Of a DNA stretch of 15,775 nucleotides, positions 1 through 7,504 are shown one piece after another. A program made the position numbers and the translations under genes. The notes under the pieces were generated by a model. That model did not search any database. It saw only the letters and a program-made list of their open reading frames with translations, and was not told where the DNA came from. Position 1 is the first letter of the stretch. Each line of letters opens with the position of its first letter. The DNA comes from Halovenus sp. Its GTDB lineage: Archaea; Halobacteriota; Halobacteria; Halobacteriales; Haloarculaceae. The stretch spans positions 1 through 15,775 of the forward strand of contig PUMG01000306.1 of the NCBI GenBank assembly GCA_003551265.1, written 5' to 3'.

Positions 1-945
1 ACAGTGAGCGTAGAACAGACGCTGTGTGAGTTCGCCGAACACGCCGCCAAGCACGCCGAAGACGCCAGCAGCGAGAAGTGCCACGAGCGGGTCGAAATCG
101 ACCGCCACCGTAAGTGCGGCGATACCGGCAGGAAGCGCCATGTGGTGGGTGACAGGGAACGAGTAGAGACCGAGCGCGAGGAAGGCGAGCGCCGCCATCG
201 TGAGACCGAACGCGAGGAACGCGCTGTTGCTCACCAGTGCGATGTACCCCGAGGCGAGTCCCACTGCGAGACCAAGCACGGCCACGTTCGCCCACTGGTA
301 GTGGTCGGGGAGCCAGACCTCGACAACTTTGCGACCCTCTGTTCCCTGTGCAGTCTCGTATCCCTCCTCGCCCCAGCGGTCGTGACGTTCGTGAGCAGAC
401 ATATCTAGCACCGAGCGGTCGAGTCCACGAACTCGCCCGATGAGCGTGTAGCCGAAGGCGATTCGGTGGACGAACCCAGAGACGACGACCGCGAGGAACA
501 CCGGGTCGACTGGAATCTCGACACCGGAAGCCAGACGCGCCAGCAAGACGCCGAAGACGCCGAAGGCACCGCCGACCAGCAGTCGGGAGGGGTCGGTCCC
601 GAGCGGCTTCGAGATGTTCTTCGCCTGGTGGTATCGGAACGTCGTGTCGAACGTCTCCTGTCTCCCGACGAACGCAGCAGCGGCGACACCTCCGGCGAAG
701 GCGACGTGTGGGCCGAGAACCGGCCCGAGTCCGATTGCACCGGTGACTCCACCGACGTCGACCGCAGCAGGTGCGACCCCGAACAGTGTCTCGTCTGCCA
801 GTAGTCCATCCGGTCCTGTGACTTCGCCGACGACGATTACGAAGCCTGCAAGAGCCAGCGCTGGGAGTGCGCCGATTGCAGCACCCAGCATCCCGCCAGC
901 CAACCCGGCAACGAGCAACTCGACAGTGAGTTCGGAAACGGGCAT
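1..945 (-). CDS. Polytopic membrane protein of unknown function (3' end beyond window)
   Basis: I do not recognise this family. The frame is open from an ATG at 945 to the window edge, giving 315 codons with no stop, so the C-terminus is missing. The protein is strongly hydrophobic with roughly seven to nine membrane segments (about residues 8-40, 64-94, 121-140, 147-167, 219-239, 242-263, 270-282 and 286-305). A hydrophilic stretch at about residues 175-212, containing MSAHERHDRWGEEGYE, separates two halves. Similar stretches occur in both halves: DPSRLLVGGAFGVFGVLL near 118-135 and DPLVALLAAGVFGVLGGVF near 285-303, which suggests internal duplication. It follows the DUF368 gene in the same direction after 74 bp, so co-transcription with aglB-DUF368 is possible but unproven. 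The internal ATG at 402 is in frame and is not the likely start, because coding character continues upstream of it. No catalytic motif is visible. Confidence 0.75.
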   Translation of the reverse strand, partial: MPVSELTVELLVAGLAGGMLGAAIGALPALALAGFVIVVGEVTGPDGLLADETLFGVAPAAVDVGGVTGAIGLGPVLGPHVAFAGGVAAAAFVGRQETFDTTFRYHQAKNISKPLGTDPSRLLVGGAFGVFGVLLARLASGVEIPVDPVFLAVVVSGFVHRIAFGYTLIGRVRGLDRSVLDMSAHERHDRWGEEGYETAQGTEGRKVVEVWLPDHYQWANVAVLGLAVGLASGYIALVSNSAFLAFGLTMAALAFLALGLYSFPVTHHMALPAGIAALTVAVDFDPLVALLAAGVFGVLGGVFGELTQRLFYAHC

Positions 946-1019: not shown

Positions 1020-2012
1020 TTATACACCGGCGTACTCCAGGTCGTCAGTGTACCTGTCGAGCAGGAGAACAGTACCCGCACCCACAAGCGCAGCCACGAG
1101 AATCGACCCACCGGTGACAGCAGTCCACGTCTCGGTTGTCTCGATGATCTGGAGAGCAGGGTAGCGAAGCGCACCGAGCATGAGGCTGACGAGAAAGACG
1201 AATGTCCCGATTCGGTAGCGTTCGAGTGCGGCACGAACGACGTAGGCGACGGTGAACAGGCCAACGAACGCGCCTGCGACGAACACAGCGACGACAGACC
1301 CCGCATCGACGAACGCGTCGGTGCTTCCACCCCCTGCAATCACGACAACGTTGTCGACGAACCGGTTCAGCGTTGCAGTCATGTAGTCGTACTGCCCGAG
1401 CAACAGGAGGATGAACGCCCCAGAGATACCTGGCAACACCATCCCGGAGATTGCAATCGCGCCAGCGCCGAAGACGACAGGAAGCGTGTGCGGGAGCCCC
1501 TCTGCAGCAGTGGCACCGGCAACGACGAACGCGAGCGAGAAGCCCACGAATCCCGCAAACACACGGCCGGGAGTCGAGAGCCACTCCAGTTCGAACAGCA
1601 CGAGCGCTGAGGCCCCAATCAACCCGAAAAAGAAGGCGAACGTCTGACCTGGAACGGTCGTGAGTGCAAACTGTACCATCCGTGCCAGCACAACCACTGC
1701 CGTCACCATACCAAGCCCGAGCGCGAGCAGAAACGGAACGTCCATCTCGACCAGTTTGGATACGAACTCGCGTCTCGACTCACTCCTGTGTACGGACCGA
1801 AGTGAGCCGAGCACCGTTGGGTCGAAGGCGGTCAGCGCACGGATAAGTCGCTCGTAGATGCCGGTGATGAGTGCAATTGTTCCGCCAGAGATACCTGGAA
1901 CGGCGTCTGCCGCACCCATCGCCAGCCCTTTACAGTAGACGACGACCAGTCCGAGCGCGCGGTCTGCCGTCGTTGCTGGCTCACCGTCGGTGTCAGCGTC
2001 AGCTGCTGGCAC
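1020..2012 (-). CDS. DUF368 / PopT-like polyprenyl-phosphate translocase
   Basis: This is a 330-residue DUF368 membrane protein. The family hallmark appears twice: DAVPGISGGTIAL at about 36-48 and MVLPGISGAFILL at about 191-203, consistent with two inverted repeats carrying re-entrant loops. About eight to ten hydrophobic segments fill the rest, and residues 1-18 form an acidic cytosolic leader. Bacterial DUF368 proteins (PopT) were recently shown to recycle undecaprenyl phosphate across the membrane. In an archaeon the matching substrate would be dolichyl phosphate; that is inference. The start is a GTG at 2012, only 5 bp after the aglB stop codon, so translation is probably coupled within one operon. 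No closer ATG exists: the next in-frame Met, residue 32, would cut into the first motif. Family assignment is firm; substrate and direction of transport are not shown by the sequence. Confidence 0.9.
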   Translation of the reverse strand: MPAADADTDGEPATTADRALGLVVVYCKGLAMGAADAVPGISGGTIALITGIYERLIRALTAFDPTVLGSLRSVHRSESRREFVSKLVEMDVPFLLALGLGMVTAVVVLARMVQFALTTVPGQTFAFFFGLIGASALVLFELEWLSTPGRVFAGFVGFSLAFVVAGATAAEGLPHTLPVVFGAGAIAISGMVLPGISGAFILLLLGQYDYMTATLNRFVDNVVVIAGGGSTDAFVDAGSVVAVFVAGAFVGLFTVAYVVRAALERYRIGTFVFLVSLMLGALRYPALQIIETTETWTAVTGGSILVAALVGAGTVLLLDRYTDDLEYAGV

Positions 2013-2017
2013 GGCTG

Positions 2018-5000
2018 TTAACCGACGACAGCCCGTGCCGAGGATTCGACCACATTGGTGGAGTCGCCGACGCTCCCAGTCTGGTCGCCGACGCTCCCAG
2101 TCTGGTCGCCGACGCTCCCAGTCTGGTCGCCGACGCTCCCAGTCTGGTCCCTGTCAGCGTCAGTCTGGTCACCAACCGAACCCGTCTCACCTTCCTCGTC
2201 TTCGTCTTCTTCCTCACCGATTTCAATTCCCTCCTCGAAGTCGAACTCCTCCTGGGGGTCGAACTCTTCGCGCTCCATATCGACTGTCACGGGCTCAGGA
2301 TCCTCACCGATGACCTGTGCCTCGGTGACGTTGGCCGTTGCCTCCCAGGTGAACATCTCTCCGTCTTCAGTCTGCTCGGGCTGAAGCGTCGTGAAGATGT
2401 ACTCGCCATCAGCCTCAACGGCGGGTTCCGTGTACCCTTCTTCGACGCCGTATTCGTCGTAGCCCGTCGTCGCGTACGGGAGGACCAGTTCGAAGCTACC
2501 GTCCTCGTCGGTCATCACCTGCCGGTCGTACGTGAATGGGTTGCCGTTCTCTGGCTCGAGCATCACCGTCACTTCGATAAGTTCGTCCTCTGGTCCAGTC
2601 CCCTCGACGGTTGCACCGGGGACTTTCTCGAACGTCTTGGTGAACGCTGGCGTGTTCGGATACATCATGTTCAGCGCCTCGTTGTCTGCCATCTGCTGGG
2701 CTTCCTGGTCGGCCACGTCTCCGTTCATACGCTCCATCAGTGCCTCACCGAACCCGGTGTTCCAGGTGTTCTGCTGTGCTGGTGCCTGCATATTCAGGTT
2801 GACGCCGTGTTCCTGAGCCATCGCGATGTCCTCCTGCGTCTGTGGGAGTGCGGACGTCTCACTCATGTGGACCAGGCGGAAGTGTTCGAGCGCTTCGACC
2901 TGTTCGGTTGGCATGGCTCCGAGACCTCCAATCTGTGCGGAGGGTGTCTCGTCGACGTACTCCTGTGCTTCTTCCAGGGTGTCGAAGACGAGCACACTAT
3001 CCTGGCCATCTGGTGGCTTCTCGACGTACCCTGAGCCTTCGAGGTCTTCACCGGGGAACTCCTGTTCGTCACCGGTCCACTCGACAACGACTGGTTGTGG
3101 GTTCTGTGAACTACCGTGATAGTGATACAGTCGCGTGACCATCGAGTCGTAGTAGGGTTGTTTCTGGAGTCTGGCTTCCGGAATGAGCTGTCCCTGTTCG
3201 CCAGCCGTCATGTATTGGAGCGTAAAGTCACGCTGGTCGAAGTCGCCGTGGAACTCCGGTGGCGCGAAGAACTTCCCGCCGACGTTGCTCTCCGTCTCGA
3301 CCATCAACCAGTCGATCATAACGAATCGGGTCTGGGCCTCCTCGTGGTCGTCAAGCGCTTCCAGTTTCTCGATTGCCTCATCCTCGTCCTGTGCGAGCAA
3401 GAACTCTGCTGCCTCGGTCGCCCCTTGCTGGAACGGGTTCGCGTTCGGGATGCGTTCGCCCCGTTCAGTAATCCAGTGACCGTAGTCCCACCACGACATC
3501 ACGCCGTAGGCCCCGTCGGGATAGTCGAAGTCGTCTGTTTCCTCGTACGTTCCGTAGAGGTCCATCGGTTCGTTGTCTGGATGGCCGAACTGCCCGGGCA
3601 CCGGTGTGCTGTCGTTCATGTACTGCAGGCTGTCGTCCCAGGCAACGACGTCACCGGGGAAGCTTGCGCCGTCAGAGAACTCTGTCGGCGTCGTATCGGC
3701 GCTGATTATCGGGAGTCCGAAAAACGGTGCGAACATCACGAGGACGATGACGCCAACCGTCAGAAGCTGGTAGGTTTCGAACCCGAACTGTTTGTCGGAG
3801 CTGCCTGCGAGTCGGAAGATGTAGCCGATGAGTACCGCGTTGAGTGCGCCCACCGTTATCGTCAGGTAATACGAGAACCGTACCTGTGTGAGACTCGCGA
3901 TGAGCATCGTGACTGCCCAGATGACGATGAGTAACTCCTCTGCTCGTGGATTCCTGCCGAGTAGCTGTTTCACCATCACCGCCCCACCGCCTGCAGCAGC
4001 GGTAAAGAGACCGAGATAGTACGTCTCGCTAATCTCGTCGAAACTCATCGGTCGAGTCTCTCCAATTGTCCCTGCTGCAGTACCCGGCGACGTCACAAAT
4101 CCGAAGACTCGGTCGATGTTGCTGATGAGGTAATCGAACAGCGTCGGTAGTGCAAGCGCCATCACTCCCATAACCAGTACGATCGAGCCAACGATTGTCG
4201 CCGGATACGCATAGCGTGTGACGCGACGTGTATCGAACTCGCGTGAGAGCCAGGCGAGAAAGAGAACGCCGCCTGCGCCCGCAAAGGCGAGTCCTGGCTG
4301 GATGAGTGACCGACTCGTGGTCCCAGTAATTTCCAGTGTGCGTGTCGTGCTCAGAATGAGGATTCCTGCCGTAGTCATGCTGATGACGCCCACGAACGCC
4401 GTGTGTTCGGGACTGCGACCACGGACGTGTTCGATGCTCATGTAGATGAGGAAGAATATTCCGAGGATGCCGAAAATCCACATTGCCGGTGGCCACGCCC
4501 AGACGTACATCGCCAGTGCTACGCCTGCGATCATGGAGTAGCCGATTGTCTCGCGCATCGCGCCGAACTCACGAACCTGGATCAGTTCGTACACCGGTTT
4601 TTCGCGTTCAGCAGCCGACAGGGCGACCATGACGCCGAGAATAGACAGCGACATGAACAGCACCTCCATCGAGTGGTGCTGCACGTTGCCTGCGAGCGTC
4701 ACCGACATCAGCCGGTCGGGCACGAGTGCAACGGTGGCGACGATGATGAGACCGCCGACTCGGCCACCGAGACGCTTGCCGATGAAGTAGCCCGGAATAC
4801 AGATGAGGACAGCGAAGAACGCTGGCGAGACGAGAAACACCTGGTGGACGAGACTCTCGCTCGGGTTCCCCAGTCCGACGATGAGTGCTGCCAGTGCGAT
4901 AATCTGGTCGAACATCGTTCCGAACTGATTGGGAGTCGTTCCGTACGGGAAGTTCGTCCACGGGTCGAACGGCATCGTCGCGGGAAAGTTCTGGACCGTG

Positions 5001-5209
5001 TAGTCGGTCATTCGCATGTGATACCATGGGTCGTTTCCGCTCAGGTACACCGTTCCGTCGACGATGAAGTTTCCGTAGTTTCGAAGTCGATTCCACAGGA
5101 TGAAGCCGACGAGGACGACCAGTACCGGGATATGATAGTACTTTTCGAGCCACGCGACCATCGCCTGTGTTTCCGATTCTTCCGAAAACTGTTCCCGCCA
5201 GTTGCTCAT
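2018..5209 (-). CDS. aglB: AglB, dolichyl-phosphooligosaccharide-protein glycotransferase (STT3 family)
   Basis: This 1063-residue protein has the archaeal STT3/AglB layout: about a dozen membrane helices (residues 27-500), then a large soluble domain facing outwards. It transfers a lipid-linked glycan to Asn in N-X-S/T sequons of surface proteins such as the S-layer glycoprotein. Visible motifs are GNDPWYH with metal-binding Asp60 (first acidic motif), NVQHHSME at 175-182 where the second acidic motif should lie, and the catalytic-domain signature SWWDYGHW, with WWDYG at 573-577. A VMIDW stretch at 630-634 may belong to the sequon-binding region. The last 60 or so residues are very acidic and end in six heptads, four of them the identical unit QTGSVGD (residues 1022-1049), then a short tail. 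The ATG at 5209 has a TATA-like box 29 bp upstream. Length matches haloarchaeal AglB (just over 1000 residues). The gene heads a likely operon with the DUF368 gene. Confidence 0.95.
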   Translation of the reverse strand: MSNWREQFSEESETQAMVAWLEKYYHIPVLVVLVGFILWNRLRNYGNFIVDGTVYLSGNDPWYHMRMTDYTVQNFPATMPFDPWTNFPYGTTPNQFGTMFDQIIALAALIVGLGNPSESLVHQVFLVSPAFFAVLICIPGYFIGKRLGGRVGGLIIVATVALVPDRLMSVTLAGNVQHHSMEVLFMSLSILGVMVALSAAEREKPVYELIQVREFGAMRETIGYSMIAGVALAMYVWAWPPAMWIFGILGIFFLIYMSIEHVRGRSPEHTAFVGVISMTTAGILILSTTRTLEITGTTSRSLIQPGLAFAGAGGVLFLAWLSREFDTRRVTRYAYPATIVGSIVLVMGVMALALPTLFDYLISNIDRVFGFVTSPGTAAGTIGETRPMSFDEISETYYLGLFTAAAGGGAVMVKQLLGRNPRAEELLIVIWAVTMLIASLTQVRFSYYLTITVGALNAVLIGYIFRLAGSSDKQFGFETYQLLTVGVIVLVMFAPFFGLPIISADTTPTEFSDGASFPGDVVAWDDSLQYMNDSTPVPGQFGHPDNEPMDLYGTYEETDDFDYPDGAYGVMSWWDYGHWITERGERIPNANPFQQGATEAAEFLLAQDEDEAIEKLEALDDHEEAQTRFVMIDWLMVETESNVGGKFFAPPEFHGDFDQRDFTLQYMTAGEQGQLIPEARLQKQPYYDSMVTRLYHYHGSSQNPQPVVVEWTGDEQEFPGEDLEGSGYVEKPPDGQDSVLVFDTLEEAQEYVDETPSAQIGGLGAMPTEQVEALEHFRLVHMSETSALPQTQEDIAMAQEHGVNLNMQAPAQQNTWNTGFGEALMERMNGDVADQEAQQMADNEALNMMYPNTPAFTKTFEKVPGATVEGTGPEDELIEVTVMLEPENGNPFTYDRQVMTDEDGSFELVLPYATTGYDEYGVEEGYTEPAVEADGEYIFTTLQPEQTEDGEMFTWEATANVTEAQVIGEDPEPVTVDMEREEFDPQEEFDFEEGIEIGEEEDEDEEGETGSVGDQTDADRDQTGSVGDQTGSVGDQTGSVGDQTGSVGDSTNVVESSARAVVG
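2063..2146 (-). repeat. Four perfect tandem 21-bp repeats inside the aglB 3' end
   Basis: Four identical, directly abutting 21-bp units (2063-2083, 2084-2104, 2105-2125, 2126-2146) each encode QTGSVGD. Two diverged units continue the same phase at 2147-2167 (QTDADRD) and 2168-2188 (ETGSVGD). The unit is a multiple of three, so copy number can change without a frameshift. Confidence 0.97.
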
Positions 5210-6283: not shown

Positions 6284-7504
6284 ATGAAACGGGGGTACGA
6301 TCTGCCGTCGAATGCTCCCGGCACCTATCTGCTGGTACGGGCCGACCGAAACGTCCCGTTTGGTAAGTTCTACAAGCCCGACAATCTTCCCCCGGAGTTG
6401 AGGCTCTCGGACGAGACGATACAGCTCGTCGAGCGAACCATGCACGCGCTCGGCCGATTGGACGGATTCAGGGGACAGGTGGAGGACGCGGAAACCGTCT
6501 TCAAGCCCCTGCTCTACAAAGAGGCCGAACAGTCCTCGCAAATCGAGGGAACGCAGGTGACGACGACCGACATCTATCGAGCGACCGCCGGCGGTGATAC
6601 CTCTGCGCGCAGTCGAGACGTACAGGAGGCGATGAACTACGTCGAGGCGCTCCAGGCAGCGAGCCAGCAACTTCTCGAGCGTGGTCGCACACCGGACAAC
6701 ATCACGCTCGAACTCCTGCTGGGACTTCACAGTACCGTCATGGAGACCGGAGCAACCGACGAGGAAGATCCGTTGCCCGGGGAGTTTCGCCCTGATTACG
6801 CGTGGATCGAGGAATCGAACGAACCGTGGCAGCGATCCGTTCGCTTCGTACCGCCAAAAGCCGAGATGGTCGACTCGATGATGGAGTCACTGCTCTCCTA
6901 CGTGCAGTCCCCGTCTCACTTCCCAGACATCGTCGACGTTGCGCTCGTTCACTACCAGATCGAGACGATTCATCCGTTCAAAGATGGGAACGGCCGCGTC
7001 GGGCGACTGTTGGCAATTCTCATGCTCGTTGCCTGCGACGCACTCACGAAGCCGTTGTTCTACATGAGCGCCTACATCAAAGCGAACCGGGAGGAGTACA
7101 CCGACCGACTGCTGGCGGTCAGCGAAGAGGGAGCGTGGGAGGAGTGGATTCAGTTTTTCGTGTCGGGAATGCGTGACCAGGCCGAGGAGGTGCTCGGCCG
7201 GGCCAAACTACTACTCGACCAGTACGAAACGTATCGAGAGACGTACGAAACCGCGTCGGAGTCGGTGCAGCGACTCGTCGACGTGCTGTTCGAGCAGCCG
7301 TATCTCACCGTCCCAATGGCCGCGGAACGAATCGACATGTCGTATCCTGCTGCAAACAACGCCGTCGGCAGACTCGTCGAGGACGGCGTGTTACTACAGG
7401 TTGAGCAACGGGAACGAAATCGCGAGTTCGTTGCCACAGACGTTATGGAGATTGTCGAACGAGATGCTGCCGCAGTGCCGACACCAGCCGAGGTGTTACA
7501 ATGA
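6284..7504 (+). CDS. Fic/DOC family protein, likely AMP-transferase, with C-terminal winged helix
   Basis: This 406-residue protein carries the Fic active-site motif HPFKDGNGRVGR (230-241); His230 is the expected catalytic base and Asp233/Gly235-Asn-Gly the nucleotide-phosphate site. SSQIEG at 84-89 matches the (S/T)xxxE(G/N) inhibitory helix and lies N-terminal to the Fic core, so this is a class II Fic enzyme in which Glu88 would block ATP until released. Residues 1-75 resemble a Fic N-terminal domain, and about 333-385 look like a winged helix-turn-helix (TVPMAAERIDMSYPAANNAVGRLVEDGVL). Such proteins usually transfer AMP to a protein target; target and biological role (toxin, self-regulator or host defence) are unknown here. 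All key residues are intact. The gene sits alone in a tRNA-bounded segment, suggesting horizontal transfer. It ends a few bases before a small ORF in another frame. Confidence 0.93.
   Translation: MKRGYDLPSNAPGTYLLVRADRNVPFGKFYKPDNLPPELRLSDETIQLVERTMHALGRLDGFRGQVEDAETVFKPLLYKEAEQSSQIEGTQVTTTDIYRATAGGDTSARSRDVQEAMNYVEALQAASQQLLERGRTPDNITLELLLGLHSTVMETGATDEEDPLPGEFRPDYAWIEESNEPWQRSVRFVPPKAEMVDSMMESLLSYVQSPSHFPDIVDVALVHYQIETIHPFKDGNGRVGRLLAILMLVACDALTKPLFYMSAYIKANREEYTDRLLAVSEEGAWEEWIQFFVSGMRDQAEEVLGRAKLLLDQYETYRETYETASESVQRLVDVLFEQPYLTVPMAAERIDMSYPAANNAVGRLVEDGVLLQVEQRERNREFVATDVMEIVERDAAAVPTPAEVLQ

What the first reader, a model, noticed from the sequence alone, without database searches (positions are those of the whole stretch)
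1020..5209. DUF368 (PopT-like) carrier translocase coupled to the oligosaccharyltransferase AglB
The DUF368 gene begins 5 bp after the aglB stop codon on the same strand. Bacterial DUF368/PopT proteins return undecaprenyl phosphate to the cytoplasmic face. AglB releases its dolichyl-phosphate carrier on the outer face, and how archaea recycle it is poorly established. The pair suggests DUF368 is the missing dolichyl-phosphate recycling step of archaeal N-glycosylation. Seen: adjacency, intact PGISG motifs, intact WWDYG. Inferred: substrate and direction.
Basis: partly seen in the sequence, partly recalled or inferred. Interest (0 to 1): 0.7.

Follow-up and report, generated by a model that had tools for sequence, protein, structure and literature searches.

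The report
Haloarchaeal lipid-carrier recycler beside oligosaccharyltransferase
In salt-loving archaea the gene for a predicted membrane transporter that returns used lipid carriers often sits directly behind the gene for the enzyme that uses those carriers to attach sugars to proteins, which suggests a carrier-recycling step for this pathway that can now be tested.

Summary
aglB (5209..2018, minus strand) is followed after 5 nt by a DUF368 gene (2012..1020). The pairing is not peculiar to this strain: 99 of 145 sampled Halobacteria genomes, 41 of 58 genera and 9 of 10 families carry DUF368 downstream of aglB on the same strand. In 63 of the 98 loci measured the estimated gap is 6 nt or less. 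Other neighbours are conserved far less: the best is an aglG-type glycosyltransferase family, in 53 of 98 loci. DUF368 occurs in 144 of 145 genomes; 36 have only an unlinked paralogue clade ("B"), and 8 have only a displaced A copy. In Haloferax it adjoins aglB or an aglM-like gene in 15 of 15 genomes. The H. volcanii homologue partly replaces a Vibrio DUF368 protein (Sit et al. 2022, PMC9876793, passages). Best reading: a dolichyl-phosphate return translocase wired to AglB. Substrate, direction and physical contact are inferred. It is not the universal archaeal solution: 151 of 185 STT3-bearing non-haloarchaeal genomes of the phylum draw lack DUF368, and haloarchaea also carry DedA. My paper searches showed no report of the aglB link.

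The parts
1020..2012 (-). DUF368 / VCA0040-like predicted polyprenyl-phosphate translocase, type A (aglB-linked), 330 aa, GTG start
1884..1898 (-). first PGISG motif of DUF368 (residues 39-43), at a break between predicted helices
   Evidence: window coordinates worked out by hand from the residue numbers
1419..1433 (-). second PGISG motif of DUF368 (residues 194-198), at a break between predicted helices
   Evidence: window coordinates worked out by hand from the residue numbers
2013..2017 (-). 5-nt spacer between aglB stop and DUF368 start
2018..5209 (-). aglB, archaeal oligosaccharyltransferase (STT3), 1063 aa
3479..3493 (-). WWDYG motif of AglB (residues 573-577)
   Evidence: window coordinates worked out by hand from the residue numbers

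Best explanation
The gene pair is a conserved haloarchaeal carrier-use and carrier-return unit. AglB transfers the glycan from its dolichyl-monophosphate carrier to protein on the outer face, leaving dolichyl phosphate there (donor known from the literature; the released product follows from it). The co-directional DUF368 protein, an all-helical membrane protein with two PGISG motifs, returns that dolichyl phosphate to the cytoplasmic leaflet for the next round (inferred from the family and from one in-print complementation). Because the donor is a monophosphate, no pyrophosphatase step is needed between the two (inference). Shown here: the pair, its class-wide conservation, the tight spacing, the selectivity, and the presence of an unlinked paralogue in most genomes without the link. 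Inferred: co-transcription, substrate and direction.
For: Linkage in 99 of 145 genomes, 41 of 58 genera, 9 of 10 families. 94 of 98 measured pairs have under 160 nt between them, so no gene; 63 of 98 have an estimated gap of 6 nt or less, and 24 of 98 have -4 or -1 stop/start overlaps. Other neighbours are far less conserved: an aglG-type GT2 family in 53 of 98 loci, a Polysacc_synt flippase family (AglR-like) in 21, the best family directly after DUF368 in 12; the window's own flanking genes were found in 2 and 5 of 158 loci, the window itself included. DUF368 is in 144 of 145 genomes; types A and B coexist in 7 genomes against 32 expected by independence, not corrected for relatedness. In Haloferax, 15 of 15 genomes have DUF368 next to aglB (6) or an aglM-like gene (9); three aglM-like representatives pass the AglM equivalog cut-off. 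The protein named DUF368 [Haloferax volcanii] (P0251) is 94.5% identical over 310 residues to a directly aglB-linked copy, and Sit et al. report that the H. volcanii homologue at least partly complements a Vibrio DUF368 mutant (passages). [quoted passage not shown] Archaeal N-glycans are mostly built on dolichyl monophosphate (passages).
Against: I found no direct assay in an archaeon. 46 of 145 genomes lack the linkage, and all 45 B copies are unlinked. G118 keeps DUF368 without a convincing AglB (best 79.7 bits against a cut-off of 450), and G021 has AglB without DUF368. 151 of 185 STT3-bearing non-haloarchaeal genomes lack DUF368, so AglB does not need it in general. All 43 haloarchaea of the phylum draw carry DedA-family proteins, which could do the same job. 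The window protein falls below both NCBIfam polyprenyl-phosphate-transporter equivalog cut-offs (173 and 77 bits against 400), though so does the H. volcanii protein.
Confidence: 0.7

Rival explanations
1. General carrier recycler: DUF368 returns dolichyl phosphate from all outer-face users (AglB, dolichyl-phosphate-mannose users such as AglS, exopolysaccharide pathways). It sits with aglB only because AglB is the largest consumer or because the two share regulation.
For: 36 of 145 genomes have only unlinked B copies; G118 keeps DUF368 without a convincing AglB; in bacteria DedA and DUF368 proteins are described as recycling the carrier in general (review passages).
Against: The linkage is selective for aglB and its pathway, and the linked state changes rarely along the DUF368 tree (7 changes by parsimony against a shuffled mean of 44).
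Confidence: 0.18
2. Outward flippase: DUF368 moves the glycan-charged dolichyl phosphate (AglB's substrate) outwards instead of returning the empty carrier.
For: Adjacency alone fits a substrate-delivering flippase as well as a product-returning one.
Against: Polysacc_synt/MurJ-type flippase genes are already in 21 of 98 of the same neighbourhoods; a DUF368 protein from H. volcanii acts in a Vibrio DUF368 mutant; lack of bacterial DedA and DUF368 proteins leaves free carrier outside.
Confidence: 0.07
3. Envelope ion or pH physiology: DUF368 serves salt or pH adaptation and its place behind aglB reflects shared envelope regulation, not a shared lipid.
For: Sit et al. connect DUF368 with alkaline and sodium tolerance and note its apparent enrichment in Halobacteria (passages).
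Against: The same work presents DUF368 proteins as candidate carrier translocases; the neighbours identified are largely N-glycosylation genes.
Confidence: 0.04
4. Frozen gene order without function: the pair is an ancestral accident that has not yet been broken.
For: Linked copies occupy most of the deep branches of the DUF368 and AglB trees, so the linkage is probably old.
Against: Flanking genes of the same loci have been reshuffled while the pair stays; the linked state is found in 9 of 10 families.
Confidence: 0.01

Closest known systems
DUF368 / VCA0040-PopT polyprenyl-phosphate translocases (PF04018; VCA0040 of Vibrio cholerae, SAOUHSC_00846 of Staphylococcus aureus, HVO_RS12060 of H. 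volcanii; Sit et al. 2022, passages)
   Same: Pfam family far above cut-off, PG[IV]SG motif in both halves, all-helical membrane protein; the H. volcanii homologue at least partly complements the Vibrio mutant in print.
   Different: Linked to an oligosaccharyltransferase and expected to act on dolichyl phosphate; below the NCBIfam equivalog cut-offs for VCA0040 and PopT.
DedA / UptA carrier flippases (PF09335)
   Same: Presumed same job, return of monophosphate carrier; present in all 43 haloarchaea of the phylum draw.
   Different: Different Pfam family; its position relative to aglB was not tested.
Agl N-glycosylation clusters of Haloferax and Halobacterium (aglB, aglG, aglM, aglR)
   Same: The window's aglB and the aglG-, aglM- and aglR-type neighbours of related loci belong to this pathway.
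   Different: DUF368 had no occurrence in the main text of two cluster papers (term counts and passages).
Bacterial pathways that release undecaprenyl monophosphate directly (L-Ara4N, teichoic-acid modification; review PMC12826051, passages)
   Same: The carrier is released as a monophosphate, so only a flip is needed (by analogy).
   Different: Different transferases, different carrier and no oligosaccharyltransferase.

Membership tests
DUF368 / VCA0040-like (PF04018) | Pfam profile match over the gathering score along most of the profile | tested here: met
   201 bits against 26, profile 1-227 of 246
DUF368 / VCA0040-like (PF04018) | PG[IV]SG motif in each half (taken as defining from the conservation seen here) | tested here: met
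   Residues 39-43 and 194-198; P, G, S and G of both are invariant in 18 archaeal sequences, with the middle residue variable
DUF368 / VCA0040-like (PF04018) | All-helical polytopic membrane fold | tested here: met
   AlphaFold2 model, mean pLDDT 86.6, 17 helices of 4 or more residues, helix breaks at both motifs; hydrophobic stretches along the chain
NCBIfam equivalogs NF052564 (VCA0040 type) and NF052563 (PopT) | Score above the curated equivalog cut-off | tested here: not met
   173.1 and 77.4 bits against 400; H. volcanii P0251 also falls below (188.6 and 89.1). It is therefore not filed under these two equivalogs.
Polyprenyl-phosphate translocase (function) | Moves polyprenyl or dolichyl phosphate from the outer to the inner leaflet | not testable with these tools
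   For archaea I saw only the complementation by the H. volcanii homologue in print (passages)
AglB / archaeal STT3 | TIGR04154 over cut-off, with STT3, AglB core and AglB_L1 domains | tested here: met
   799 bits against 450; PF02516, PF22627, PF18079
AglB / archaeal STT3 | WWDYG motif | tested here: met
   Residues 573-577
AglB / archaeal STT3 | Oligosaccharyl transfer activity | not testable with these tools

The most novel reading that the evidence does not exclude
Type A DUF368 is a dedicated partner of AglB that takes dolichyl phosphate directly from the oligosaccharyltransferase (a transferase-flippase pair, made together through touching or overlapping reading frames), whereas type B is a free-standing recycler that has taken over in several lineages; N-glycosylation flux in haloarchaea would then be set by carrier return.
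Probability: 0.15. Interest if true: 0.8.

Novelty: new variant of a known kind. Interest (0 to 1): 0.62.

Why it matters
I found no paper that says how the empty dolichyl-phosphate carrier returns to the cytoplasmic face in archaeal N-glycosylation (searches, open-licence library only). A class-wide link between the oligosaccharyltransferase and a family already known to move polyprenyl phosphates gives a named, single-gene candidate in a genetically tractable organism (H. volcanii), with a clear prediction for glycan occupancy and carrier pools. It would also give the haloarchaeal members of DUF368 a pathway; the published discussion I saw offers salt adaptation.

Tried and rejected
Fusion of AglB and DUF368: long open frames reported for some DUF368 matches (1066 aa in G134) proved to be frames overlapping aglB in another frame; no fusion in the four loci looked at.

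Simple frozen synteny: disfavoured because flanking genes change while the pair stays. A first gene-calling attempt was distorted by antisense ORFs and lost one or both anchor genes in 46 of 98 loci; it was replaced by a GC3-GC2 scoring with the two anchor genes forced in. The clusters are single-linkage groups, so the 53-locus GT2 group may hold more than aglG; only one representative was scored as AglG.

aglB absent in G069, G043 and G118: the Pfam STT3 profile missed them; TIGR04154 finds AglB in G069 (adjacent to DUF368) and G043 (about 2.7 kb away, same strand) and only a weak match in G118.

Neighbourhood of B copies and of methanogen-side copies: six loci of each were printed, and one neighbour of each kind was scanned (an NADH:flavin oxidoreductase and no family). 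By eye I saw no consistent glycosylation link, but two sequences there look glycan-related: a GT2-like start beside the B copy of G032 (L169) and a sugar-epimerase-like start beside the copy of G156 (L236). Neither was scanned, so a glycosylation link of B is not excluded.

H. volcanii genome itself: not among the 15 Haloferax genomes held as far as identity shows (best 94%), so I did not see the neighbours of HVO_RS12060; that P0251 is HVO_RS12060 is inferred from its name.

Papers not held: Roney and Rudner 2023 and Taguchi et al. 2016 (recalled, not seen).

Full report
WHAT IS THERE. The window is contig C222 of a 2.91-Mb haloarchaeal draft. Its organism falls in the same family (f1 of the tool's labels) as Haloarcula, since the DUF368 stretch of an f1:g3 genome is 100% identical to a protein named Haloarcula sp.. 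aglB runs 5209..2018 and DUF368 2012..1020, both on the minus strand, with 5 nt between. Both identities are secure. The only start that keeps the first predicted helix is the GTG at 2012.

CONSERVATION. I searched the same 145 Halobacteria genomes (drawn evenly from the class) with PF04018 and PF02516. DUF368 is found in 144 of 145. STT3 by Pfam is found in 142; TIGR04154 recovers AglB in two of the other three, so AglB is present in 144, with G118 lacking a convincing one. In 98 genomes the DUF368 match lies 1.4-4.4 kb beyond the STT3 N-terminal match on the same strand, downstream. G069 makes 99 after the TIGR04154 search: 41 of 58 genera, 9 of 10 families. Of the 98 loci measured (the window plus L063-L159; G069 not measured), taking the first ATG or GTG no more than 30 nt before the aglB stop, 63 have a gap of 6 nt or less, 31 have 26-157 nt, and 4 have 1.5-2.1 kb. 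24 of the 63 have -4 or -1 stop/start overlaps. Starts are not experimentally known.

SELECTIVITY. Within the loci fetched (matches plus 5 kb on either side, less at contig ends), the most frequent other gene family is a GT2 transferase in 53 of 98 loci (45 of 97 at position -1, divergent). Its representative is AglG by an NCBIfam equivalog above cut-off (518 bits against 440). Next come an FAD protein (25), a sulfatase (23), an Fe-S protein (22) and a Polysacc_synt/MurJ-type flippase (21); the best family directly after DUF368, a methyltransferase, is there in 12 of 98. The window's own flanking genes (DUF5804 and the truncated ORF at 945..1) were found in 2 and 5 of 158 loci, the window itself included. 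So the pair stays while its surroundings change. These 98 loci were chosen for being linked; against all 145 genomes the linkage is 68%. No genome-wide distribution of pair conservation was made.

HISTORY. A tree of 172 DUF368 proteins puts 45 unlinked copies in one clade (B, support 0.993). All 99 linked copies lie outside it (A, a grade: in an earlier tree of 157 B is joined to the f4 sequences by a node with support 0.999). Deep nodes of that tree are weak in part (0.16-0.49), and the unlinked copy of G129 branches near its root, so an ancestral linkage is likely rather than certain. By genome: A linked only 93, A linked plus B 6, B only 36, A unlinked only 8, A unlinked plus B 1, none 1 (G021). 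A and B coexist in 7 genomes against 32 expected by independence (not corrected for relatedness). AglB proteins from 19 unlinked loci (fetched for 19 of the 46 unlinked genomes) scatter among the 99 linked ones (12 changes by parsimony against a shuffled mean of 18). The simplest reading is that the linkage is old in Halobacteria and was lost several times; 37 of the 46 unlinked genomes carry B. G043, one of the 8, has DUF368 about 2.7 kb from aglB on the same strand.

WHERE aglB HAS MOVED, aglM OFTEN REMAINS. In G030, G048, G095 and G126 (f4:g15) the unlinked A copy lies next to, or its open frame overlaps that of, an aglM-like gene; in the four long-gap loci (G014, G078, G113, G122) such a gene lies between aglB and DUF368. 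AglM is assigned by an NCBIfam equivalog above cut-off for G113, G030 and G095. Of 200 loci scanned, 10 had an aglM-like gene at that threshold, so this neighbour is confined to part of f4. f4:g27 is Haloferax (the G113 protein is 98% identical to a Haloferax elongans entry). In all 15 Haloferax genomes held, one DUF368 copy is next to aglB (6) or an aglM-like gene (9) in the short loci returned; a second copy in G350 (L368) is next to neither. The protein named DUF368 [Haloferax volcanii] (P0251) is type A by similarity: its five best matches in the tree set are linked Haloferax copies, the best 94.5% identical over 310 residues.

NAMED EXAMPLES. Of the 80 named loci kept from the genome-contig scan (capped; more existed), 15 are haloarchaeal. 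9 of these 15 have AglB directly upstream: Halorhabdus amylolytica, Halostagnicola sp. A56, Halorubrum sp. Hd13, Halorubrum coriense, Halolamina salifodinae and four MAGs. 6 have no AglB in the stretch held: Halonotius roseus, Natronorubrum halalkaliphilum, Halobellus rufus, Natrarchaeobius chitinivorans, one MAG, and a copy on a Haladaptatus plasmid record.

OUTSIDE HALOBACTERIA. In a phylum draw of 246 genomes (43 Halobacteria, 203 others), DUF368 is in 34 of 203, STT3 in 185 of 203 and DedA (PF09335) in 87 of 203; 9 have both DUF368 and DedA and 91 have neither (odds ratio 0.42, p = 0.04, not corrected for relatedness). A published analysis reports a like avoidance between one DedA subfamily and COG2035 in bacteria (PMC10127716, passages). 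All 34 DUF368 genomes have STT3, and none has the two adjacent at the places listed (several are drafts, and a contig end could hide a case such as G287). In 4 of the 5 family f29 genomes with DUF368 they lie 12-15 kb apart on the same strand. One Thermoplasmata contig (L290) has STT3, AMMECR1, an amidohydrolase and DUF368 in a row on one strand. It is a single case, but from a separate lineage. None of the other 65 - that is, non-haloarchaeal - named loci nor the 19 phylum loci fetched showed AglB nearby by the haloarchaeal AglB profile, which would miss distant STT3.

MECHANISM. Shown here: co-direction, near-zero spacing, selective class-wide linkage, an unlinked paralogue in most genomes without the link, PGxSG motifs invariant in both halves among 18 archaeal sequences and a helical model (mean pLDDT 86.6). 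From papers: the H. volcanii DUF368 homologue at least partly complements a Vibrio DUF368 mutant (PMC9876793, passages); lack of DedA and DUF368 proteins leaves undecaprenyl phosphate on the outer leaflet (PMC12826051, passages); archaeal N-glycans are mostly built on dolichyl monophosphate, with delivery from it supported in H. volcanii, though for Halobacterium salinarum both mono- and pyrophosphate have been proposed (PMC4476749, passages). Inferred: AglB leaves dolichyl phosphate outside and DUF368 brings it back. Since the released carrier is already a monophosphate, the pair would suffice without a pyrophosphatase.

WHAT IS IN PRINT. Searches on DUF368 with archaea (6 papers, 2 opened), AglB recycling (1 paper, listing only), PopT with archaea (1 paper), AglB clusters (25 of 26 listed, 3 opened), AglR (5 listed, 2 opened), COG2035 (1 paper), scramblase (none), HVO_RS12060 (1 paper), DUF368/AglB and related words (30 of 1,423 listed, none of the 30 holding DUF368) and DUF368 with glycosylation (3 papers, 2 opened) showed me no paper that links DUF368 with aglB. 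Opened means passages found by term, not the whole text. Sit et al. mention dolichol phosphate once, in general terms, and suggest salt adaptation for Halobacteria (passages). Makarova et al. 2015 on archaeal membrane proteins does not contain DUF368 or COG2035 in its main text (term counts; its own arCOG number for the family was not searched). The library holds open-licence papers only, so a report in a subscription journal could have been missed.

VERDICT.

Noticed in passing
window 2063-2149: A perfect 21-bp repeat, 4.1 copies, encodes GSVGDQT units in the low-complexity C-terminal tail of AglB, just before the stop; other f1 AglB tails printed are also low-complexity but differ in sequence.
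   Followed up: partly
L290:174-6864 (Thermoplasmata archaeon AUK133): STT3-like gene, AMMECR1, amidohydrolase and DUF368 in a row on one strand: possibly an independent, looser link between STT3 and DUF368.
   Followed up: partly
genomes G223, G231, G247, G329 (family f29): DUF368 and STT3 lie 12-15 kb apart on the same strand in 4 of the 5 DUF368-bearing genomes of this non-haloarchaeal family.
   Followed up: no
45 unlinked type-B DUF368 copies, e.g. L179, L166, L173: A separate DUF368 paralogue clade spread over families f1, f3 and f8, present in most genomes that lack the aglB-linked copy; in six loci looked at by eye no consistent glycosylation neighbour was seen, apart from a GT2-like sequence in L169.
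   Followed up: partly
G021 (family f5): The one haloarchaeal genome of 145 without DUF368 (best match 10.5 bits); it keeps AglB and two DedA matches.
   Followed up: partly
G118: A genome rated 100% complete with DUF368 but only a weak STT3-like match (79.7 bits against a cut-off of 450): possible loss or replacement of AglB.
   Followed up: no
G074:C1:2722822-2722971 and G090:C25:154401-154529: Short extra matches to the C-terminal part of the DUF368 profile 1-2 kb downstream of the main gene (25.6 and 20 bits), possibly remnants of a duplication.
   Followed up: no
window 6284-7504: A Fic/DOC-family protein (Fic_N plus Fic domains) in a haloarchaeal draft.
   Followed up: no
window 1-945 (-): A truncated ORF running off the contig end after DUF368, hydrophobic by eye; matches found in 5 of 158 loci, the window included.
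   Followed up: no
phylum draw, 203 non-haloarchaeal genomes: 91 of 203 have neither a DUF368 nor a DedA match, so some other carrier-return protein may exist in those archaea.
   Followed up: no
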